From Candidatus Hydrogenedentota bacterium (GTDB lineage: Bacteria > UBA8481 > J006), in contig RFFU01000133.1 of the NCBI GenBank assembly GCA_003697085.1, positions 1 to 16,074 on the forward strand: a DNA stretch of 16,074 nt, read 5' to 3'. The notes below the pieces were generated by a model. That model searched no databases. It was not told the DNA's origin and worked only from the letters and a program-made list of their open reading frames with translations. Within the stretch, counting starts at the first letter, position 1; every line of letters begins with the position of its first letter. This document shows, piece by piece, positions 1,719-14,893 of the stretch. The position numbers and the translations under genes were made by a program.

Positions 1719-3608
1719 TCAGTCTTCTCCCAGGAGTGACTCGATCTCCTTCCGCAGAGCCGCCGTTTCCTCCAACGTCTCCCGAACGAAAGAATCCTCC
1801 GAGGCGGACGGATGGGCTTCGGCGTAGTCGCGAATGATACGGGTTCCTCGTCGGTCGTCCTTTTCCTTGGAAAGGCGCACGTTCTCGGCAACCTTCTCTT
1901 GCATTTCGATAAGTTTTCCCAACGCCTCCTCGACGGAAATACCCGGGAACTCCGCGAGAAGAACTCCGCGCTCGTGTTCCCAACGGTCGGCTTCGCTGGG
2001 GGAGGAAAGGAGTGTGTCCCAGCGATCGCGGGAAAGAGAAGACTCGCGGATTCTACGGTAGAGGCCTCGAAGCGCGTAGTAACGGATAAAGAAAGTATAG
2101 ACTTCGATACCACGAATGCGGGCTCCGTCCTTGAGATAATTCTTTCCCAAGCCGGGAATATCCTGGGATGTGTAGAATTCCTTAACCTTCGGGACTTCGA
2201 CGAGCCGTTTTCGGGCCCGGAGCATCTTGTCGACGATCTCCGGACGGAAGACCTCAAATACCAATCGGTTTCTCTCGGCCCCGTTCCGCCTCTTGAATTT
2301 GATTTCGTTCCGTTTTACCGCATAGGTGTTTTCACTCAAGAGCCATCCGGGTAAAAGTTCGTTTATCGCCGGCGATAATCCGGGAAGACGTTCGGCCGGA
2401 GTATTGATAAGAGAGAAGGGAAATTCAAGCCGTTGAGGGAGGACAGTCACGTTGGTGGCGACCATCGAGTAAGGGGCTTCCGTGAAATCCGAGGGGAACT
2501 TGATATTGCATCCCAACCCGAAGAAGGTGCCTTCGCCGGGCCAAAACTCCTGGTCCGGTGCTTTCCCAGTATGATTTGAACCGATATTCGCACCGTAACC
2601 CACATTTCCTTTTCCTTCGGGCCAGAGGACGGCGATCAGAAGCGCCTGATGATGAAAGCCGACAAAGGGGCCGATCAAACTCGCTTTTACCTCTCCCTTT
2701 TCAATAGCAGTGTTTGGACCGATATACGAATTCGTTACTGTGCCATGATGCCTAATGCAGGTTGATTCCCCCAGAACGGAATTTTCGACTACGGCCATCG
2801 AGGAGACCTCGGTTCCCCATTGGACCACGGAGTTTTGAATCGAAGCGCCGCCTGAAATTCGGACCGGTTCTTCGGGGGCGGAGAGCAGAATGGTATTCTT
2901 TACAAGCGAAGCGCCGTCTACGACGGTGCCCGTTCCGATACAGAAGTTTGTTAGGCACGCGGTATTAAGAATTCGACATCCGCTTTCTATTATCGATCGC
3001 GCGGTTGCGGCGCGTTTCTTCGCTTCGTGGACGAGATTTGAGTACCTCTGGAGGAAATCATGATCGGCGCGATGTTTCGCTACACAGGCGGCGATTTCGA
3101 CCGTGATTTCCGGGAAGAGGGGGACTTCGCGCCCGCCGGTCTCGATTCCCAGAGAAAGATTTTCTCCAATACAGAAAGAGGTGGGCGGGGTTTCGGTCGT
3201 GAGGCGGCCACAGTTCATCAGAATTGTGTCGGTCTGTATCGACGTGCGGCAGAGAAGAGAGACGTTCCGGATCACGGAACGTCCAAAGACGTTACAATCA
3301 GCAAGGACTGTATTCCAAATTTCCGCCGGGAGGGGAATCGTTTCAAGAAGGAGGTTGCCGGGAGAGAGGCCGAGGTGAACGGAACCGAGGAAGTGGGAGT
3401 AGTGAACGAGATCGGGATCGAAATTTCCGCCGACCGTCACCCGGCTCCAGTCCTCGGCCCGGTTACCGTTCTTCTCCATCCGTTCAATCTCTTTTTCGGT
3501 CAAGGCGCGGGATTCGGTGGGGGGAGACGAGATTCGAGAGATCGCCTTCAGGAAATCCGATTCCCGAATCAACCGTTCCGTTTCGATAAGGCATTCCTCC
3601 GGTGTCAC
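1719..3608 (-). CDS. DUF4954 family protein (left-handed beta-helix / hexapeptide-repeat protein)
   Basis: The protein has 629 residues, close to the usual length of DUF4954 proteins, and its function is unknown. N-terminal residues 36-80 carry the family opening ('ALTEKEIERMEKNG', 'AEDWSRV', 'FDPDLV'). Residues about 76-400 contain many hexapeptide-like turns of the acyltransferase/nucleotidyl-sugar type (for example 'NVFGRSVIRNVSLLC', 'NSVVQWGTEV', 'NSVLGESTCI', 'NSYIGPNTAIEKGEV'). A highly conserved block at 338-373 includes 'YGANIGSNHTGKAPDQEFW' and 'FFGLGCNIKFP'. The rest (about 420-629) is charged and helical. The start is GTG at 3608, because 'GGGAG' sits a few bases upstream on the minus strand. 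It follows nagB by 43 bp, so the two are probably co-transcribed. A role in amino-sugar or sugar-nucleotide metabolism is inferred from fold and neighbour only. Confidence 0.85.
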   Translation of the reverse strand: MTPEECLIETERLIRESDFLKAISRISSPPTESRALTEKEIERMEKNGNRAEDWSRVTVGGNFDPDLVHYSHFLGSVHLGLSPGNLLLETIPLPAEIWNTVLADCNVFGRSVIRNVSLLCRTSIQTDTILMNCGRLTTETPPTSFCIGENLSLGIETGGREVPLFPEITVEIAACVAKHRADHDFLQRYSNLVHEAKKRAATARSIIESGCRILNTACLTNFCIGTGTVVDGASLVKNTILLSAPEEPVRISGGASIQNSVVQWGTEVSSMAVVENSVLGESTCIRHHGTVTNSYIGPNTAIEKGEVKASLIGPFVGFHHQALLIAVLWPEGKGNVGYGANIGSNHTGKAPDQEFWPGEGTFFGLGCNIKFPSDFTEAPYSMVATNVTVLPQRLEFPFSLINTPAERLPGLSPAINELLPGWLLSENTYAVKRNEIKFKRRNGAERNRLVFEVFRPEIVDKMLRARKRLVEVPKVKEFYTSQDIPGLGKNYLKDGARIRGIEVYTFFIRYYALRGLYRRIRESSLSRDRWDTLLSSPSEADRWEHERGVLLAEFPGISVEEALGKLIEMQEKVAENVRLSKEKDDRRGTRIIRDYAEAHPSASEDSFVRETLEETAALRKEIESLLGED

Positions 3609-3651
3609 TTCTCTCCCTTTCTTTGGTTTCGCGCCCTACACGAATCTGCTC

Positions 3652-4485
3652 CTATACATAAGAACACGAATGATCCCGAAGGAGCGACGCGGGATCAAGG
3701 TTCTCCTGTTCGATATCCTTGAAATAATTCACGGTGCCGACCCGGAGTTCTTCCGTCGCATCTTCGTCACAAACGATCAAGGCTTTGGGATGGAGTTGAA
3801 GGGCGGAAACCGTCCACATATGGTTTACTCCTTCTTCGACGACCATTTTTAGGGCCCGTGCTTTGTTATGTCCCGTGATAATAATCAGAACCTCCTTCGC
3901 GGCCATCACCGTACCGACGCCCACGGTAAGCGCGCGCTTTGGCACCTTCGAGATATCATTGCCGAAAAAGCGGGAGTTGGCCAGGATCGTGTCGTAGGTG
4001 AGAGTCTTAATGCGGGTTCGTGAGGAGAGGGAGGAGCCTGGTTCATTGAAGGCGATGTGACCATCCGGCCCGATCCCCCCCAAGAAGAGGCGAATGCCTC
4101 CGTAAGAACGGATCTTTTCCTCATACGCGGTGCATTCTTTCTCCAGGTCCGCGGCGTTTCCATTCAGGATATTGACCTGGTCAGGAGGAATATCAATGTG
4201 ATCAAAAAGATTTTTTTTCATAAAAGAATGGTAACTTTCCGGATGATCTTCCGGGAGTCCGATATATTCATCCATATTGAACGTTACGATATTACGGAAA
4301 GAGATCTTTCCTTCCTTGTAAAGGCGAACAAGTTCGCGGTAAGTGCCCAGGGGTGTTGAACCTGTCGGCAGTCCCAGCACCAGGGGTTTTTCCGGTGTGG
4401 GGGCTTCCTCCTTATAGGTCTTGAGGACATAGTGCGCCACCCAACGAGAGACAGAATCATAATCCTTTTGGATAATCAGTCGCAT
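3652..4485 (-). CDS. nagB: Glucosamine-6-phosphate deaminase
   Basis: The enzyme converts glucosamine-6-phosphate to fructose-6-phosphate and ammonia in the cytoplasm, feeding amino sugars into glycolysis. The 277-residue product aligns without offset to E. coli NagB numbering as I recall it. The catalytic residues are present: Asp72 in 'FNMDEYIG', and Asp141, His143 and Glu148 in '[16 protein letters not shown]'. The phosphate loop 'GLPTGSTP' is at 38-45. The residues that bind the allosteric activator N-acetylglucosamine-6-phosphate in E. coli also look conserved: Ser151, Arg158, Lys160 and Tyr254. Allosteric control is therefore plausible. The start is ATG at 4485, preceded by GGAGG (4492-4496) with 6 bp spacing. 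A longer TTG start at 4500 would bury that ribosome site in the coding region. The gene is first in a likely nagB-DUF4954 operon. Confidence 0.97.
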
Positions 4486-4491
4486 ACAAAA

Positions 4492-4496
4492 CCTCC
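4492..4496 (-). promoter_or_regulatory. Ribosome binding site of nagB
   Basis: GGAGG on the minus strand lies 6 bp before ATG 4485. It decides the start, because the upstream in-frame TTG at 4500 would overlap this site. Confidence 0.8.
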
Positions 4497-4638
4497 ACAA
4501 ACTTTAGCTTTTTCCATCACACGAGCCGTTCCGGGAATGCGAAAACGGCGCGGAGAAAGAAATGTCGAAAAGGGCGAAGGGCCCCTGATCAGTTCCACAG
4601 AAATCTTTTGAATAAACGGAAAAACTTTCGCGCCAGAG

Positions 4639-8941: not shown

Positions 8942-9238
8942 ATGAAACTGGGAAAGGTCATCGGAAGTGTCGTCGCGACGCGGAAGAGTCCTCGTCTGGA
9001 AGGATTCAAACTTCTCGCGATCCAATACATCACTCCGGACGGCGCTGCTCGTCGGGAGTACGACATTGCGGTGGACGCGGTGGGCGCAGGGGCGGGGGAG
9101 TGGGTCTTGACGGTGCGTGGCTCGTCGGCTCGCGAGGATGTGAAGACGCGAAAGGCGGCCACGGATACGACGATCATCGCCATCGTGGATCGCCTGGACT
9201 GGCGAGGCGAGGTTAGGAACACGGAAGGAGGAGGGTGA
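8942..9238 (+). CDS. EutN/CcmL family bacterial microcompartment vertex protein (BMC-P), copy 1
   Basis: A 98-residue protein of the pentamer family that caps the vertices of microcompartment shells. Signature elements are present: N-terminal 'MKLGKVIGSVVATRKSPRLEG', then 'KLLAIQYI', 'DIAVDAVGAGAGEWVLTVRGS' and C-terminal 'TTIIAIVDRLDW'. The length is typical of the family (about 80-100 residues). It starts 10 bp after the RsbW/STAS stop. No Shine-Dalgarno is seen before ATG 8942, so translation may depend on coupling to the upstream gene. It is the first of three consecutive, clearly diverged BMC-P genes. No BMC-H (hexamer) gene is in the window. Confidence 0.9.
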   Translation: MKLGKVIGSVVATRKSPRLEGFKLLAIQYITPDGAARREYDIAVDAVGAGAGEWVLTVRGSSAREDVKTRKAATDTTIIAIVDRLDWRGEVRNTEGGG

Positions 9239-9588
9239 TGTATCTCGCGCGCGTCGTAGGGCGGGTCTGGGCGACAAGAAAGAATGAAAACTATTCCGGT
9301 GTACCGCTTTTCATTGTCGAGAAGATCGACGAGGATTTTCGGAGCCTGGGAAGCCGGGAGGTTGCGATCGACTCGGTCGGTGTCGGCGAGGGTGAGGTCG
9401 TCTGGTGCGAGGGAGGGAAGGAAGCCGCCTTCGCCCTCCCCTCGCGTTACGGTCCCAGTGATGCTTCCATCGTCGCCAAGGTGGACCATCTCGACGTGGC
9501 ATTGAAGCCGCCCGCGGATCGGCCTGTCGAGATCGTGGGAGAGCGGGGGATTCCGATCGGCGAAGTTCGGAAGGGGAGTGAGGCGTGA
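9238..9588 (+). CDS. EutN/CcmL family bacterial microcompartment vertex protein (BMC-P), copy 2, C-terminally extended
   Basis: The product has 116 residues. ATG 9238 overlaps the preceding TGA (TGATG) and follows a strong GGAAGGAGGAGGG site. A GTG at 9235 is also possible. The family pattern is 'MYLARVVGRVWATRKNENYSG', 'PLFIVEKI', 'EVAIDSVGVGEGEVVWCEG' and 'SDASIVAKVDHLD'. The usual 'GSSAR' after the GEG strand is replaced by 'GKEAAF', so the pore-proximal loop differs. A further ~25 residues after the normal family end ('PPADRPVEIVGERGIPIGEV') are unusual and could be a docking or tethering tail (inference). It is likely one of three pentamer types made from the same message. Confidence 0.88.
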   Translation: MYLARVVGRVWATRKNENYSGVPLFIVEKIDEDFRSLGSREVAIDSVGVGEGEVVWCEGGKEAAFALPSRYGPSDASIVAKVDHLDVALKPPADRPVEIVGERGIPIGEVRKGSEA

Positions 9589-9860
9589 AACTGGCTCTGG
9601 TTATCGGAAAGGCCGTTGCCGAAGAGAAGCACCCGACTTTCGAGAAGCGAACGACGCTTCTCTGTCGCCCTTTGAATCTCGACCTCGAACCGGAAGGACC
9701 ACCGATCATTGCGATGGACACGGTAGGAGCGGGGGAAGGGGAGGTGGTTTTGATCATCCAGGAGGGGCGTTCCGCCCGCGATTTCACTCAGAATCCTCAC
9801 GCGGCGACGAGGACAATGATCGTGGGAATCGTGGACCGACTGGACCGATATGAGGAGTGA
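9585..9860 (+). CDS. EutN/CcmL family bacterial microcompartment vertex protein (BMC-P), copy 3
   Basis: The product has 91 residues. The start is GTG 9585, overlapping the previous stop as GTGA and preceded by GGGGAG. Family elements are 'KLALVIGKAVAEEKHPTFEK', 'IIAMDTVGAGEGEVVLIIQEG', 'RSARDF' and 'TRTMIVGIVDRLDRYEE'. The region after the first strand ('TTLLCRPLNLDLEPEGPP') is longer and less like copies 1 and 2. The three copies share the GxGEG strand-turn but little else, so they probably arose by old duplication and may form distinct homo- or hetero-pentamers. A 104-bp gap holding a 32-codon ORF separates it from aroF. Confidence 0.9.
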   Translation: MKLALVIGKAVAEEKHPTFEKRTTLLCRPLNLDLEPEGPPIIAMDTVGAGEGEVVLIIQEGRSARDFTQNPHAATRTMIVGIVDRLDRYEE

Positions 9861-9869
9861 GGCGAAGCG

Positions 9870-9968
9870 GTGATTCCGGGAGTCGGGTCGAAGAGGTTCG
9901 GAGGTTGGGAACCGAACGACGCCGCTCTGATGCGTGGTGAACGATTCCGCGGGGAAAGCGGCGAATGA
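9870..9968 (+). CDS. Possible small ORF (32 codons) bridging BMC-P3 and aroF
   Basis: GTG 9870 opens a 32-codon frame that ends with a TGA overlapping the aroF ATG (ATGA at 9965-9968). It therefore fills the gap exactly and could couple aroF translation to the BMC-P genes. The predicted peptide starts '[20 protein letters not shown]' and resembles nothing I recognise. The stretch also contains a 6-bp hairpin (GTTCGG ... CCGAAC, about 9896-9917). It may equally be an untranslated leader of aroF. Confidence 0.25.
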
Positions 9969-10966
9969 TCATCGTCATGGCTCCGGGGCACACGCCGGAG
10001 GAGCGCGCGCGTGTGGAAGAGACAATTCGTTCTCACGGATACCGTGTCGTTCCGATCGTCGGCGAGTTGAGAACGGTGATCGCCGCAGTGGGCGACGGGG
10101 ACAAGGACGTGCTTTACCAGTGCGAGTCCTTTCCCGGGGTCGAGAGCGCTATGCGCGTGCTCACACCCTACAAATTCGTCGCCAAGGTTCCCGGCCGGTT
10201 GCGGACGGTCATCAATGTCGCGAATACGGTGATCGGTGAGGGAACCCTTCGTGTGATCGCCGGCCCGTGTTCGGTCGAGACGGAAGAGGGGTACCTGCGG
10301 ATTGCAAAGGCCGTAAAGGAGGCCGGGGCGGATCTTCTACGCGGAGGGGCCTTCAAGCCGCGCACTTCGCCGTATTCTTTTCAAGGTTTGGGCGAGGAGG
10401 GCCTGCGGATTCTCGCTCGAGTCGGAAAGGAATTGGGCTTGGGAGTGGTGACGGAGGTGATGAGCCGGGACACGGTGGAGCTGGTGGCGTCCTACGCCGA
10501 CATTCTTCAGATCGGCGCGAGGAATATGCACAACTTCGCCCTTTTGAAAGAGGTAGGGCGGTGCGAGAAACCGGTCTTTCTCAAGCGGGGGATCGCGGCC
10601 ACGATCGAGGAATTCCTGATGGCCGCCGAATACATCGTCTCGGCGGGCAATCCCAACGTCATTCTCTGCGAGCGGGGAATACGCACCTTCGAGACAGCCA
10701 CTCGGTTTACGCTCGACATCAACGCCGTCGCGGTCTTGAAGAAACGGAGTCATCTTCCCGTCTTTGTCGATCCGAGTCACGCGACGGGGCACTGGGAGTT
10801 GGTTGCTCCTGCGGCGAAGGCCGCGGTGGCGGCCGGAGCGGACGGATTGATGATCGAGGTGCACGACGATCCCGCTTCCGCCGTCAGCGACGGTATCCAG
10901 TCGTTGCTGCCGCATCGTTTTGCTGCCTTGATGCACGAACTGCGGGGAAAAGAGTCGGCGGGGTGA
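9965..10966 (+). CDS. aroF: 3-deoxy-7-phosphoheptulonate (DAHP) synthase, AroF/type I-beta with N-terminal ferredoxin-like regulatory domain
   Basis: The enzyme condenses phosphoenolpyruvate with erythrose-4-phosphate, the first step of aromatic amino acid synthesis. The product has 333 residues. Residues 1-74 form the small ferredoxin-like domain found in Thermotoga-type enzymes, where it mediates feedback by aromatic amino acids. The (beta/alpha)8 barrel carries 'AGPCSVE' (99-105), '[16 protein letters not shown]' (126-141), 'IGARNMHNF' (183-191), 'FLKRG' (205-209), 'CERG' (235-238) and 'DPSHATG' (269-275), covering substrate and metal ligands. The start ATG 9965 overlaps the stop of the small upstream ORF. 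It is probably transcribed with the BMC-P genes. Whether it is cargo or simply a neighbour is unknown. Confidence 0.95.
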
Positions 10967-11071
10967 TGCCTTTTTTTCTTTCCGTCGGCGTTTCGGCAAG
11001 GTAAAGTTTTCTGTGGGACGGGAGGGTTTCTTCCGGTTCATGACGTCCGCTTGGGAGGTGCTGAGTTTGAG

Positions 11072-12436
11072 ATGAAGAGGATCGTTGTTCTGCTTTTGGG
11101 ATTGTCGTTGATCGCGGAAAGTTCGGAAGCATTGCTCGGGCCTCCGCCGGAACTCGACGCCCGCGATGTCCATTTGGGGCTCGAGGTGGGAACCGGCAAG
11201 CGGGACGTGAAATTGACCGGATCGGCCGGACCCTCTCGGATCAATCCGACCGTTCTTACGTTCTCTCAAACCTCTCTCGACCTCCGGCTCGATTATGGAA
11301 TCAGCAAGACCTTCTCCGTGTACGGACTTCTCGGGTTTGAGAAGGGCGATTTGGGAACGTTGACGTTTCCCGCGGGCCTGGGAAATCTTCCCATGAACGG
11401 CGATCTCGGTTTTTTGGCGGGAATCGGCGGGCAGGCCGTCTTTTCGCCGATGTCGACGGCGCCCGATCTCTTGGTGGCGCTTTCCGGAGAGTTCCGCACA
11501 TTCCGTTCCGACATTTCCGGAGGTCAGATCGACGCGGACGAAATCCGCCTGGCGCTGAAGGGATCGCGGCGTTTCGGGCAGTTGGTCCCCTATGGGGGGG
11601 TGATGTGGTCGTCGCTCTCGGCGGATTTCACCGGAACGACCTCCATTTCCCAAGCCGCTCGCGGCGACCTCGATTCCGATGACGAATTCGGTTTGCTGCT
11701 CGGGGCACAATACGATTTCAGTCCGCGAATTCAGGGGCGGGTCGAGGCTGAGCTCGTCTCCTCGACGGCCATCAATCTTTCGGTCGTTTACAATCTCGGG
11801 GGTTCCTGGACCCATCCTCCGCGCGCGGCGGCGCCGCCCCCGGAACCGGCAGGGTCCAAGCGCACGTCGGCGAAGAAGCGCGGCGGTTCTCCGGCAGCGA
11901 CGCGACGTCGCGCGGAGCGAAGCGAGCGGGCTTACGAGGCCCGTCGTCGCGCCCAGGAGGTGGCGGCGGAAGGGGGGAGAGAAGAGAGGCGGAAAGAGAG
12001 CAGCGGCGGAGAAGGAGAAGTGCGGGCCCCGAGTGGAGCGGTAGGGCCGGAAGAGGCGGCCGCTTCGCCTTCTCCCCGCGACATCGCGCAGGCGCGCGAG
12101 TTGGTGCGCGAGGGCAACGAACTCGTGGAATTGGGAAAGACGGCGGACGCGATCGTGAAGTACCGCCGCGCCGTGGCACTCGATCCGTCCAACGTCCGTG
12201 CTTGGTACAACCTCGCGACGGCGCAGTACCTCGATCGCGATTACCTCGGCGCCCGCGCTTCGTACGAGGAAACCGTTCATCTCAATCCGGAAGATGTCGA
12301 TGCCCATCTCTACCTCGGGTTCTGTTATTTCCGTCTGGGGGACCGGGACGGCGCGATTCGAGAGTGGAAGCGTGTCTTGGAACTCGATCCTGAAAACTCT
12401 GTGGCGAAGAACAACATTCAGGCTTTGAGCCGGTAA
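11072..12436 (+). CDS. Outer-membrane beta-barrel-like protein fused to C-terminal TPR repeats
   Basis: The product has 454 residues from ATG 11072, chosen because the signal peptide 'MKRIVVLLLGLSLIAESSEA' begins there. GGGAGG at 11053-11058 is rather distant (13 bp). A TTG at 11051 would add seven residues. Residues about 23-245 show alternating amphipathic strands with aromatic girdle residues ('LDLRLDYGISKTFSVYGLLG', 'PDLLVALSGEFRTF', 'FGLLLGAQYDFSPRIQGRVE', 'INLSVVYNLGGSW'), like a small porin-type barrel. Residues about 246-335 are a long Pro/Ala then Arg/Glu-rich linker, probably partly coiled. Residues about 335-454 are three TPR units ('AWYNLATAQYLDRDYLGARA', 'AHLYLGFCYFRLGDRDGAI'). 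Both the linker and the TPRs would sit in the periplasm. The exact role is unknown; it is likely linked to the CpaF ATPase 59 bp downstream. Confidence 0.7.
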   Translation: MKRIVVLLLGLSLIAESSEALLGPPPELDARDVHLGLEVGTGKRDVKLTGSAGPSRINPTVLTFSQTSLDLRLDYGISKTFSVYGLLGFEKGDLGTLTFPAGLGNLPMNGDLGFLAGIGGQAVFSPMSTAPDLLVALSGEFRTFRSDISGGQIDADEIRLALKGSRRFGQLVPYGGVMWSSLSADFTGTTSISQAARGDLDSDDEFGLLLGAQYDFSPRIQGRVEAELVSSTAINLSVVYNLGGSWTHPPRAAAPPPEPAGSKRTSAKKRGGSPAATRRRAERSERAYEARRRAQEVAAEGGREERRKESSGGEGEVRAPSGAVGPEEAAASPSPRDIAQARELVREGNELVELGKTADAIVKYRRAVALDPSNVRAWYNLATAQYLDRDYLGARASYEETVHLNPEDVDAHLYLGFCYFRLGDRDGAIREWKRVLELDPENSVAKNNIQALSR

Positions 12437-12495
12437 CGAATGCGGGGAGAAGAGAAGAGAGAAGAGACGAAAGTATCGGAAGGAGGGAAGGAAAG

Positions 12496-13830
12496 ATGTC
12501 CTTAGCGGAGAAGATGGCGCAGTTGCGTACGGGCGGTGAGGTCGAGAAGAAGAAGAAGGTGGACCTACACAACAAGGTGACCGAGGCCGTGCGGCCGCAA
12601 CTGGATGTCGATCTGCTGCGGAGTCCGGATCACGAGATGCGGGATCGCGTTTTGAAAGAAAAAGTGACGGAAGCGGCCCTGAGAATCACGACGGAGGAGA
12701 ACATCAATCTGAGCAAGACGGAGTTCGAGCGGCTGGTTTCGGACGTTGTCGCCGGAATTCTCGGCTTCGGCCCGCTTGAACGCCTTCTGCGCGATAAGAC
12801 CGTAACGGAAATAATGACGAAAGGACCGTATTGTGTCTTCGTGGAGCAGAATGGGAAGGTGATCAAGTCCGACGTAAAATTCCGTGACGAGGAGGAGTTG
12901 CGGGAGATCGTGGACAAGATTATGAAACCGTTGGGGCGTGTCTGCGACGAGACGACGCCGTACCAGGACGCCCGCCTTCCCGACGGGTCGCGTGTCAACG
13001 TCGTGATTCCTCCACTGGCGCTGGACGGGACGGCCTTGACGATTCGGAAATTCTCGAAGAACCGTCTCACGCACAAGGACTTGATTCGGTTTGGATCGAT
13101 GACGGAGGAGATGGCCGAGTTCCTGAAGTGTTGCGTCAAGGCGCGGTTGAACATCATCGTCTCGGGCGGAACGGGAAGCGGTAAAACGACGCTGCTCAAT
13201 GTTCTTTCCTCGTTCATTCCCGAGGAGGAGCGGACCGTGACGATCGAGGATGCGGCGGAGTTGAGTTTCGCTCAGGAGCACGTCATTCGGCTCGAGACGC
13301 GTCCGCCGGATTTCGAGGGGAAGGGCGAGATTACGATCCGGGATATGGTTCGTAACGCCTTGCGGATGCGGCCCGACCGGATCGTCGTTGGAGAATGCCG
13401 CGGCGGAGAAGCGATGGATATGTTACAGGCGATGAATACGGGGCACGACGGGTCGATGACGACGATCCACGCCAACAGCCCCCAGGACGTGATCTCGCGG
13501 CTCGAGACCCTCGTGATGATGGCGGGATACGAACTGCCGATCAAGGCGATCCGAAAGCAGATCTCCAGCGCCATCAACCTCATCATTCAGCAATCCCGCC
13601 TTCTGGATGGTTCGCGCAAGATTACGTACATCACCGAGGTGCAGGGGATGGAGGGAGAATCGATACTTCTCCAGGACATCTTCGTCTTCGAGCAGGAAGG
13701 AATGGGACCTGACGGAAAGATCATTGGAAAACTGAAACCGACGGGACTGGTTCCGAAATTCATCGATCGATTCAAGGCGGAAGGAATCGAGGTATCGCCG
13801 GCGCTCTTTCACGCGCAGAACGAGGAGTAG
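12496..13830 (+). CDS. cpaF: CpaF/TadA family type II/IV secretion ATPase
   Basis: A cytoplasmic hexameric ATPase that powers Tad/Flp pilus assembly or a related secretion machine. The product has 444 residues, typical of CpaF. After a charged N-terminal domain with 'GFGPLERLLRD' (90-100), residues 224-231 are the Walker A 'GGTGSGKT', 'RMRPDRIVVGECRGGEA' (290-306) is the Walker B region, and 'TGHDGSMTTIHANSP' (315-329) is the His box. The motif near 105-110 reads 'EIMTKG', where 'DIMVNG' is commonly seen. ATG 12496 has AGGAGG at 12481-12486. TadB, TadC, CpaB, CpaC and prepilin genes are absent nearby, so the ATPase is an orphan here. It is instead flanked by a barrel-TPR protein and two small TPR proteins that probably share its operon. 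Confidence 0.93.
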   Translation: MSLAEKMAQLRTGGEVEKKKKVDLHNKVTEAVRPQLDVDLLRSPDHEMRDRVLKEKVTEAALRITTEENINLSKTEFERLVSDVVAGILGFGPLERLLRDKTVTEIMTKGPYCVFVEQNGKVIKSDVKFRDEEELREIVDKIMKPLGRVCDETTPYQDARLPDGSRVNVVIPPLALDGTALTIRKFSKNRLTHKDLIRFGSMTEEMAEFLKCCVKARLNIIVSGGTGSGKTTLLNVLSSFIPEEERTVTIEDAAELSFAQEHVIRLETRPPDFEGKGEITIRDMVRNALRMRPDRIVVGECRGGEAMDMLQAMNTGHDGSMTTIHANSPQDVISRLETLVMMAGYELPIKAIRKQISSAINLIIQQSRLLDGSRKITYITEVQGMEGESILLQDIFVFEQEGMGPDGKIIGKLKPTGLVPKFIDRFKAEGIEVSPALFHAQNEE

Positions 13831-13914
13831 TCCTCGGTTTCGTTCGAACTCACCCGGGTCGCGGTGGGCCGGATCGAGGAAAACCGCGTCGGGAGACGGG
13901 CAAGGAGGTCGTTC

Positions 13915-14331
13915 GTGGGGTACAGGCGTCCCATCTTCATTCTCGGGCTGATGATTGTAAGCCTGTTGGTGATCTTTTCCGGTTTGCTTGTTCCCCCCCA
14001 ACAGCGCTGGCCGAACGTCTTGAAACGGACGGCGCAACCGCCTCCGAAGAGAATCACTCACCGACCTCCCCCGCCGGGGCAGAAGTTGGATCCCGAGGAG
14101 AAGAAGGCCTTGGAGGAGGCCGCGGATGCGCAGTATCGCCTGGCGGAGTACTATTATCAAAAGGGCGATCTCGAGCGAGCGCGGGAGGAGTACGTCAAAC
14201 TCATCGACAATTTTCCTTATCTGGAATTGGATTACGGGTTTCGACGGGACGAGGCGTGGGCGCGGTTGAAGGAGATAAACAAGATGTTGGCGGCCGAGAA
14301 AGAGGCCGCGACGCGGGGCGTTCCGAAATAA
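13915..14331 (+). CDS. Small membrane-anchored TPR-like protein
   Basis: The product has 138 residues. GTG 13915 is preferred over ATG 13864 because AAGGAGG (13902-13908) lies 6 bp before it, and because the membrane segment then starts at the N-terminus. Residues about 6-26 ('PIFILGLMIVSLLVIFSGLL') form one transmembrane helix. Residues 36-60 are Pro-rich, and residues about 65-125 are a TPR-like helical hairpin ('AQYRLAEYYYQKGDLERARE') facing the periplasm if the N-terminus is inside. The function is unknown. It follows cpaF by 84 bp and lies 1 bp from the next TPR gene, so it may be a structural partner of the ATPase-driven system. Confidence 0.7.
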   Translation: MGYRRPIFILGLMIVSLLVIFSGLLVPPQQRWPNVLKRTAQPPPKRITHRPPPPGQKLDPEEKKALEEAADAQYRLAEYYYQKGDLERAREEYVKLIDNFPYLELDYGFRRDEAWARLKEINKMLAAEKEAATRGVPK

Positions 14332-14332
14332 A

Positions 14333-14893
14333 ATGGCGTTGAAGGGGCTCGGCGCCGGTGCCATCTCTGTTCGAGTTCAAGCCTGGACGGACCAAGTCCG
14401 GGCGCAGGGATTTGAGGCCTTGTGGCACAGATTATCGGATGAGGAGCGGGAGGAGTTCGTGCGTTTCGCCTCTCGCTTCGACGAGATTCTGGCTTTGGAA
14501 GCGGAGAAGCGATGGCAGGCGGCCGTCGATGCATACCAGGGGTTGGCCGAGAGTTTCCCACCGTATTCGGATGTCGCCATCGAGCGAGCCGGGTATCTCG
14601 TGAACGAAAAGATTAACCGCGCGATCCGCTATTACAACAACGGAGTTCGGGCGCTCGAGGCGAAGATGTACAACAAGGCCATGCAGTACTTCGATTTGGC
14701 GCTGGGTATCGATCCGTATATGGAGCGGGCGCTGTACAATCTCGGAATGGCACACAAACTCAATTACCTCGCGAATCCCGAGGCAAATCATTTATCGAAG
14801 GTTTCGGCGATCGAGGCCTTCAAGAAACTTCTGAAGATCAATCCGGGTCATCTTCGCGCCGCGGCGCAGGTTGAGCAGATGTCCCGATTATGA
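14333..14893 (+). CDS. TPR repeat protein
   Basis: The product has 186 residues with no signal peptide or membrane segment, so it is probably cytoplasmic. Residues about 50-180 contain TPR-type helix pairs ('KRWQAAVDAYQGLAESFPPY', 'AIRYYNNGVRALEAKMYNKA', 'MQYFDLALGIDPYMERALYN', 'AIEAFKKLLKINPGHLRAAA'). ATG 14333 is one base after the preceding stop and lacks a clear ribosome site, so it is probably translated by coupling. TPR proteins are usually protein-binding scaffolds. The partner is not known, but the CpaF ATPase or the membrane-anchored neighbour are natural candidates (inference). Confidence 0.75.
   Translation: MALKGLGAGAISVRVQAWTDQVRAQGFEALWHRLSDEEREEFVRFASRFDEILALEAEKRWQAAVDAYQGLAESFPPYSDVAIERAGYLVNEKINRAIRYYNNGVRALEAKMYNKAMQYFDLALGIDPYMERALYNLGMAHKLNYLANPEANHLSKVSAIEAFKKLLKINPGHLRAAAQVEQMSRL

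What the first reader, a model, noticed from the sequence alone, without database searches (positions are those of the whole stretch)
8942..9860. Three tandem, diverged microcompartment vertex proteins without any hexamer shell gene
Three consecutive EutN/CcmL (BMC-P) genes overlap or nearly touch, and each has the GxGEG family core but a different sequence elsewhere. BMC-P pentamers normally cap shells built mainly from BMC-H hexamers, yet no BMC-H, BMC-T, aldehyde dehydrogenase or other signature cargo enzyme is in the 16-kb window. This is either a satellite vertex locus serving a shell encoded elsewhere or a pentamer-only use of the fold. The neighbours (MBL hydrolase, RsbW/STAS regulator, DAHP synthase) are not a classical BMC set as far as I know.
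Basis: partly seen in the sequence, partly recalled or inferred. Interest (0 to 1): 0.8.

Follow-up and report, generated by a model that had tools for sequence, protein, structure and literature searches.

The report
Outlying vertex genes of scattered microcompartment
The three small genes make the corner pieces of a bacterial protein organelle whose walls and enzymes are encoded elsewhere in the same genome, an arrangement already known; the scattered parts suggest that the organelle breaks down the sugar of DNA.

Summary
Confirmed: three consecutive, overlapping EutN/CcmL (BMC-P) genes at 8942-9860, 29-43% identical to each other. They are not a recent local duplication (AU p 0.009). One falls in each of three ancient BMC-P clades, and 11 of 11 triplet-bearing genomes examined have exactly one B and one C member plus an A member: the published 'BMC-P triplet'.

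'No hexamer' holds only for the 16-kb contig. The same genome encodes BMC-H, a fourth BMC-P and an acylating aldehyde dehydrogenase (C86), PduT-type BMC-T with PduS (C143), PduL (C133) and a deoxyribose-phosphate aldolase with an encapsulation-peptide-like helix next to DeoB (C8). So this is a satellite vertex locus of a dispersed (FRAG-like) BMC; pentamer-only use is not supported.

The neighbours are not partners: in the sister genome the RsbW-like, OmpTPR and CpaF genes run in the same order without BMC-P or AroF, and its triplet lies elsewhere.

Likeliest function: corner proteins of a deoxyribose-5-phosphate (SPU-type) metabolosome. EP-like helices occur on DeoC in 31 of 49 BMC-P genomes versus 1 of 20 without (p 8e-6); DeoC lies within 2 kb of BMC-P in at least 18 genomes. 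Catalogued FRAG BMCs lacked a signature enzyme, so that link is the interesting part.

The parts
8942..9238 (+). BMC-P vertex protein P1 (98 aa), clade A; closest solved structure 5v74 chain A1, annotated EutN/CcmL (to my knowledge the Haliangium ochraceum BMC-P)
   Evidence: PF03319 E 1.5e-29; 5v74 E 2.3e-21; tree
9235..9588 (+). BMC-P vertex protein P2 (117 aa from GTG 9235, or ATG 9238), clade B, with a C-terminal extension of about 30 residues
   Evidence: PF03319 E 6e-22; tree clade of 11 rows, one per triplet genome
9585..9860 (+). BMC-P vertex protein P3 (91 aa, GTG start), clade C
   Evidence: PF03319 E 2.1e-23; tree clade of 11 rows, one per triplet genome
7537..8931 (+). RsbW-like HATPase gene immediately upstream (start uncertain); probably shares a transcript with the triplet but is judged not a BMC partner
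   Evidence: PF13581 E 7.6e-21; the sister homologue lies in the same CpaF operon without BMC-P genes
9965..10966 (+). DAHP synthase (AroF type), 105 bp downstream; together with the triplet absent from the sister's RsbW-OmpTPR junction; no conserved link to BMC
   Evidence: PF00793 E 5e-82; PRK08673

Best explanation
The three genes encode the vertex (pentamer) proteins of a bacterial microcompartment whose other parts are scattered over the genome. Each is a different ancient type (A, B, C), so the shell can have three kinds of corner, plus a fourth (second type A) encoded next to the BMC-H gene. The shell walls are the single BMC-H (C86) and the PduT-like BMC-T (C143). [quoted passage not shown] Shown: gene content, the one-B-one-C rule, dispersed locations, EP-like helices, conserved catalytic and Fe-S cysteines, and the statistical link of EP-DeoC with BMC-P genes. 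Inferred: that all these proteins assemble into one organelle, that the helices target cargo, the substrate, and any role for having three corner types.
For: BMC-H, tandem BMC-T and a fourth BMC-P on other contigs. Acylating AldDh beside BMC-H, 69% identical to the sister's, whose AldDh sits in PduL-BMC-H-AldDh-PduS-PduT-EutQN, with N-terminus MDDAEIAGIVSRVMSRL. PduL with MDEALIGRIVEEVLHSL on C133. DeoC (TIGR00126 E 8e-89) with a VERITREVVRRL helix, beside DeoB (TIGR01696 E 1e-129), on C8; deoC-deoB also adjacent in the sister. PduT-like protein keeps a Cys aligned with the Cys of 3pac and 3nwg; AldDh keeps the PduP active-site region. BMC-P tree: 11 of 11 triplet genomes have one B and one C. 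EP motif on DeoC in 31/49 BMC-P genomes vs 1/20 without, p 8e-6; N-terminal extension of 40 aa or more in 46/49 vs 9/19; DeoC within 2 kb of BMC-P in at least 18 genomes. G030 has PduL-A-RpiB-B-C-DeoC in one cluster.
Against: No experiment; no proof that proteins from five contigs meet in one shell. The closest AldDh relatives are mostly in clostridial BMC loci without DeoC nearby (DeoC in 6 of 80 loci), so the AldDh alone does not point to deoxyribose. Other signature enzymes (class II aldolase PF00596, glycyl-radical enzymes) were not searched in this genome. DeoC in G000 carries an unidentified 250-residue middle region. The EP motif is short, and one control genome (G334) has it too.
Confidence: 0.72

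Rival explanations
1. Satellite vertex locus of a dispersed BMC whose cargo is not deoxyribose-phosphate but another aldehyde-producing pathway (for example a class II aldolase or glycyl-radical route).
For: AldDh, PduL, PduS and PduT are shared by many BMC types; 74 of 80 nearest AldDh loci lack DeoC; the 2021 catalogue lists FRAG types without an obvious signature enzyme (PMC8217296).
Against: EP-like helix on DeoC in this genome, and deoC-deoB adjacency in this genome and its sister (the sister's DeoC N-terminus is cut off by its contig end); association of EP-DeoC with BMC-P across genomes.
Confidence: 0.2
2. Pentamer-only use of the BMC-P fold: the three proteins form assemblies without hexamers, serving the local MBL/RsbW/AroF genes.
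For: No BMC-H or BMC-T in the 16-kb contig; the genes follow the RsbW-like gene by 11 bp, so co-expression is likely.
Against: BMC-H and BMC-T in the same genome and BMC-H in all 13 BMC-P genomes examined; neighbours not conserved with the triplet; the RsbW-like gene belongs to a CpaF operon without BMC-P in the sister.
Confidence: 0.03
3. A relic: the triplet is an inserted or leftover copy that no longer contributes, the working corner protein being P4 beside BMC-H.
For: P4 alone sits in the main cluster; triplet+AroF interrupts an operon that is uninterrupted in the sister; P1 is divergent (end branch 1.22).
Against: All three frames are intact with short overlaps and full-length PF03319 matches; the A-B-C set is complete, as in 11 of 11 genomes.
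Confidence: 0.05

Closest known systems
BMC-P triplet (Sutter et al. 2021, PMC8217296)
   Same: Three BMC-P paralogues from three separate clades, two of which always co-occur; here B and C co-occur in 11 of 11 genomes plus an A member
   Different: This genome has a fourth BMC-P (second A) by the BMC-H gene; the paper's clade colours could not be assigned here
FRAG BMC types (Sutter et al. 2021)
   Same: Shell genes scattered over several loci, BMC-P triplet, most shell genes far from enzymes, found in candidate phyla
   Different: A candidate signature enzyme (EP-tagged DeoC with DeoB) is proposed here; the paper lists FRAG1-7 among types lacking one
SPU (sugar phosphate utilization) BMC (Axen 2014 PMC4207490; Sutter 2021)
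   Same: DeoC, RpiB, AldDh, PduL, PduS/PduT-type parts in one genome; BMC-P triplets and DeoC side by side in relatives such as G030
   Different: In this genome the parts lie on five contigs instead of one locus
HO BMC of Haliangium ochraceum
   Same: Three BMC-P, one BMC-H, satellite BMC-P genes; P1 and P4 are nearest to the BMC-P of structure 5v74, which I know as the HO shell
   Different: The only BMC-T here is PduT-like, whereas HO has three BMC-T (PMC4207490)

Membership tests
BMC-P (EutN/CcmL, PF03319) | Full-length PF03319 domain over cut-off | tested here: met
   78-103 bits against a 25-bit cut-off for all three
BMC-P (EutN/CcmL, PF03319) | Forms pentamers at shell vertices | not testable with these tools
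   No experiment; relatives of P1-P3 have solved structures
BMC-P triplet | Three paralogues from three separate clades, two of them always together | tested here: met
   One B and one C in each of 11 genomes, plus an A member; P1+P2+P3 as one clade rejected, p-AU 0.009
BMC-P triplet | Membership of the published gray and orange clades | not tested
   The reference tree is in supplements not held
FRAG BMC | Shell genes in several separate genomic places | tested here: met
   Shell genes on C31, C86 and C143; contig ends put the triplet at least 10 kb from BMC-H whatever the scaffold order
FRAG BMC | Match to the FRAG shell-protein profiles | not tested
   Those profiles were not in the libraries searched
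SPU BMC | DeoC-type aldolase, RpiB and AldDh with a BMC shell in the genome | tested here: met
   DeoC on C8, two RpiB (C137, C86), AldDh on C86, BMC-H on C86
SPU BMC | These genes grouped in one locus with shell genes | tested here: not met
   Spread over C8, C31, C86, C133, C143
Metabolosome cargo | Encapsulation-peptide-like amphipathic helix on core enzymes | tested here: met
   AldDh, PduL, DeoC and EutQN-like N-termini; DeoC motif 31/49 vs 1/20
Pentamer-only BMC-P system | No BMC-H/BMC-T in the genome | tested here: not met
   Three PF00936 domains in the genome: one BMC-H, one tandem BMC-T

The most novel reading that the evidence does not exclude
Dispersed (FRAG-type) microcompartments in this and related lineages are scattered deoxyribose-phosphate (SPU-type) metabolosomes: the missing signature enzyme is an EP-tagged DeoC encoded away from the shell genes, and the BMC-P triplet is a portable three-corner kit that moves as a block into unrelated operons.
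Probability: 0.45. Interest if true: 0.6.

Novelty: new member of a known kind. Interest (0 to 1): 0.42.

Why it matters
It shows that the apparent oddity is the normal state of dispersed microcompartments. It also gives a testable substrate, DNA-derived deoxyribose, for a class of organelles that the 2021 catalogue left without one. The triplet's different address in two genomes of one order suggests that corner genes relocate independently of the shell, which bears on why cells keep three corner types when twelve pentamers of one type would close a shell.

Tried and rejected
Pentamer-only reading: rejected by BMC-H in all 13 BMC-P genomes examined. Neighbour-based function (MBL, RsbW-like, AroF): rejected by absence of synteny and by the sister's BMC-free RsbW-OmpTPR-CpaF order. 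Recent tandem duplication: rejected. Horizontal origin of the triplet: not resolved; P2 grouping with the sister's B is borderline (p 0.048), P3 and P1 not rejected. AldDh neighbours as substrate evidence: uninformative, mostly clostridial loci. RsbW-like search in 386 genomes: only the HATPase part is widespread, one clear homologue in the sister. A degenerate alignment of type B could not be used for a genome scan. One EP script mis-picked frames and is replaced; its gene-distance table stands. Promoter/terminator scan of the region gave no more than chance.

Full report
What is there. ORFs at 8942-9238, 9235-9588 and 9585-9860 on the + strand are full-length BMC-P (EutN/CcmL) proteins. They overlap by a few bases (TGATG and GTGA junctions), start 11 bp after an RsbW-like gene, and are followed 105 bp later by a DAHP synthase gene. 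Their mutual identity is 29-43%. Nothing else in the window is a shell or BMC cargo gene.

The genome. The window is all of contig C31 of a 3.2-Mb, 145-contig genome that is 94.6% complete. The genome has three PF00936 domains: one BMC-H on C86 and one tandem BMC-T on C143. It has four BMC-P: the three here and one between BMC-H and an aldehyde dehydrogenase on C86. The C86 dehydrogenase is of the acylating PduP/EutE group (NF011927, 586 bits; nearest structures 5jfl and 6gvs). C143 has a PduT-like BMC-T next to a PduS-like RnfC-family protein; the PduT-like protein keeps the cysteine aligned with those of 3pac and 3nwg, which from general knowledge of PduT holds a 4Fe-4S cluster. C133 has PduL. 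GC content of the five contigs is 56-58%. Because the triplet is at least 6.2 kb from the nearest end of C31 and the C86 cluster at least 4.6 kb from its own, the triplet and BMC-H cannot be closer than about 10.8 kb.

Sister genome. The only other sampled member of the order, G001, has a contig of the same length as PEWQ01000188.1 of Candidatus Hydrogenedentes bacterium CG07_land_8_20_14_0_80_42_17, which also carries the same 69%-identical AldDh, so the window's organism is probably of that lineage; its own name was not found. In G001 one cluster reads PduL - BMC-H - AldDh - PduS - PduT - EutQN-like - 5'-nucleotidase - GGDEF sensor. In the window's genome the same parts are split over C133, C86 and C143, with the EutQN-like, 5'-nucleotidase and GGDEF genes still following the AldDh on C86. 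G001's BMC-P triplet is on another contig between other genes. On G001 contig C30 the homologues of the window's RsbW-like, OmpTPR, CpaF and two following genes run in the window's order, with no BMC-P and no AroF between RsbW-like and OmpTPR. The triplet (with or without AroF) is therefore either inserted in one lineage or lost from the other, and the operon around it has no conserved tie to it.

The triplet rule. A tree of 37 BMC-P proteins from 13 genomes has a clade B of 11 rows and a clade C of 11 rows, each with exactly one protein from each of the same 11 genomes; the rest are type A. The two genomes with a single BMC-P have only type A. Support for the B/rest split is modest (84/94) and for C 94/85, but the one-each pattern in 11 of 11 genomes does not depend on those values. 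Treating P1, P2 and P3 as one clade is rejected (p-AU 0.009), so they are not a local duplication; P1 and P4 may be. Across 386 genomes 94 have BMC-P and about 78 of these have three or more (counted). This is the 'BMC-P triplet' of Sutter et al. (PMC8217296), who also define satellite loci and describe FRAG BMCs whose shell genes lie in up to six places, commonly with a triplet, in candidate phyla among others.

Cargo. In the same genome C8 carries a 510-residue protein whose C-terminal part is DeoC (TIGR00126, 297 bits) and whose N-terminus reads VNVDKMLVERITREVVRRLERS, next to phosphopentomutase DeoB. The AldDh (MDDAEIAGIVSRVMSRL), PduL (MDEALIGRIVEEVLHSL) and EutQN-like protein (MDLELIRRVVEEEVRRAV) begin alike. 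Using a pattern written from those three, an EP-like helix was sought upstream of the DeoC core: 31 of 49 BMC-P-bearing genomes have it against 1 of 20 genomes without BMC-P, Fisher p 8e-6. The pattern was written after the DeoC N-termini had been seen, so it is not fully blind. An earlier, differently built motif test gave 34 of 49 against 5 of 19, p 0.002. The one exception, G334, is 82% complete and its family has other members with BMC-P. The controls were the best-scoring DeoC of BMC-free genomes, not a random draw, and the species are related to varying degrees, so the p-values are approximate. DeoC lies within 2 kb of a BMC-P gene in at least 18 genomes; G030 has PduL, BMC-P A, RpiB, BMC-P B, BMC-P C and DeoC in a row. 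The sister's DeoC is cut by its contig end, so its N-terminus could not be read. This is the chemistry that Axen et al. named SPU and tied to DNA breakdown (PMC4207490).

Reading. The genes are the vertex set of a dispersed microcompartment, most likely one for deoxyribose-5-phosphate. Dispersal matches FRAG; enzyme content matches SPU. Sutter et al. list FRAG1-7 among types without an obvious aldehyde-producing enzyme. A text search for later work on FRAG BMCs found only that paper among those held, which is not proof of absence.

Limits. The genome is a draft. The substrate rests on gene content and a short motif. The EutQ-like module on RpiB of C86 was seen by eye only and did not reach significance in the profile search. 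The clade letters here are not mapped to the published colours.

Noticed in passing
L008 4594-5085 (-), G000:C86: A 163-aa protein next to the AldDh has an EP-like N-terminus and two copies of a module like the EutQ N-terminus (EutQ residues 3-48, E 8.6e-5), the part shown in Salmonella to join shell and cargo (PMC12487888). It may be this organelle's shell-cargo bridge; the sister has the same protein.
   Followed up: partly
L246, L109, L107, L260, L306: The same EutQ-like module occurs by profile search in PduL C-termini, an RpiB N-terminus and other proteins of BMC loci in many genomes; it could be a second kind of cargo-docking tag besides EPs. The RpiB tail at G000:C86 about 21,100-21,200 looks similar by eye only.
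   Followed up: partly
L162 1428-2960 (-), G000:C8: The DeoC protein has about 250 residues of unidentified sequence between the EP-like helix and the aldolase; DeoC proteins of G001, G119, G133, G166, G019 and G268 have long extra regions in the same place.
   Followed up: no
L248 (G026:C26): One open frame of 480 aa joins RpiB and DeoC, a natural fusion of the two SPU signature enzymes.
   Followed up: no
L008 1109-4529 (-), G000:C86; L112 96-3337 (-): A UshA-like 5'-nucleotidase and a HAMP-GAF-GGDEF sensor gene follow the BMC cluster in both genomes of the order, which would fit feeding on nucleotides.
   Followed up: partly
L111 7661-9124 (-), G000:C133: A PLP-dependent enzyme distantly like cysteine synthase lies directly after the EP-tagged PduL; role unknown.
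   Followed up: no
window 1719-4500 (-): A DUF4954 hexapeptide-repeat protein and a glucosamine-6-phosphate deaminase gene are neighbours.
   Followed up: no
window 11051-14893 (+): An OmpTPR - CpaF ATPase - small protein - TPR cluster is conserved in order with the sister genome (CpaF 81% identical) and looks like part of a Tad-like pilus or secretion system.
   Followed up: partly
L262 (CP070695.1): A contig labelled Heimdallarchaeota holds a full SPU-like set (PduL, BMC-H, BMC-P, AldDh, PduS, PduT, RpiB, BMC-P, DeoC); either a microcompartment in an archaeal assembly or a mislabelled genome.
   Followed up: no
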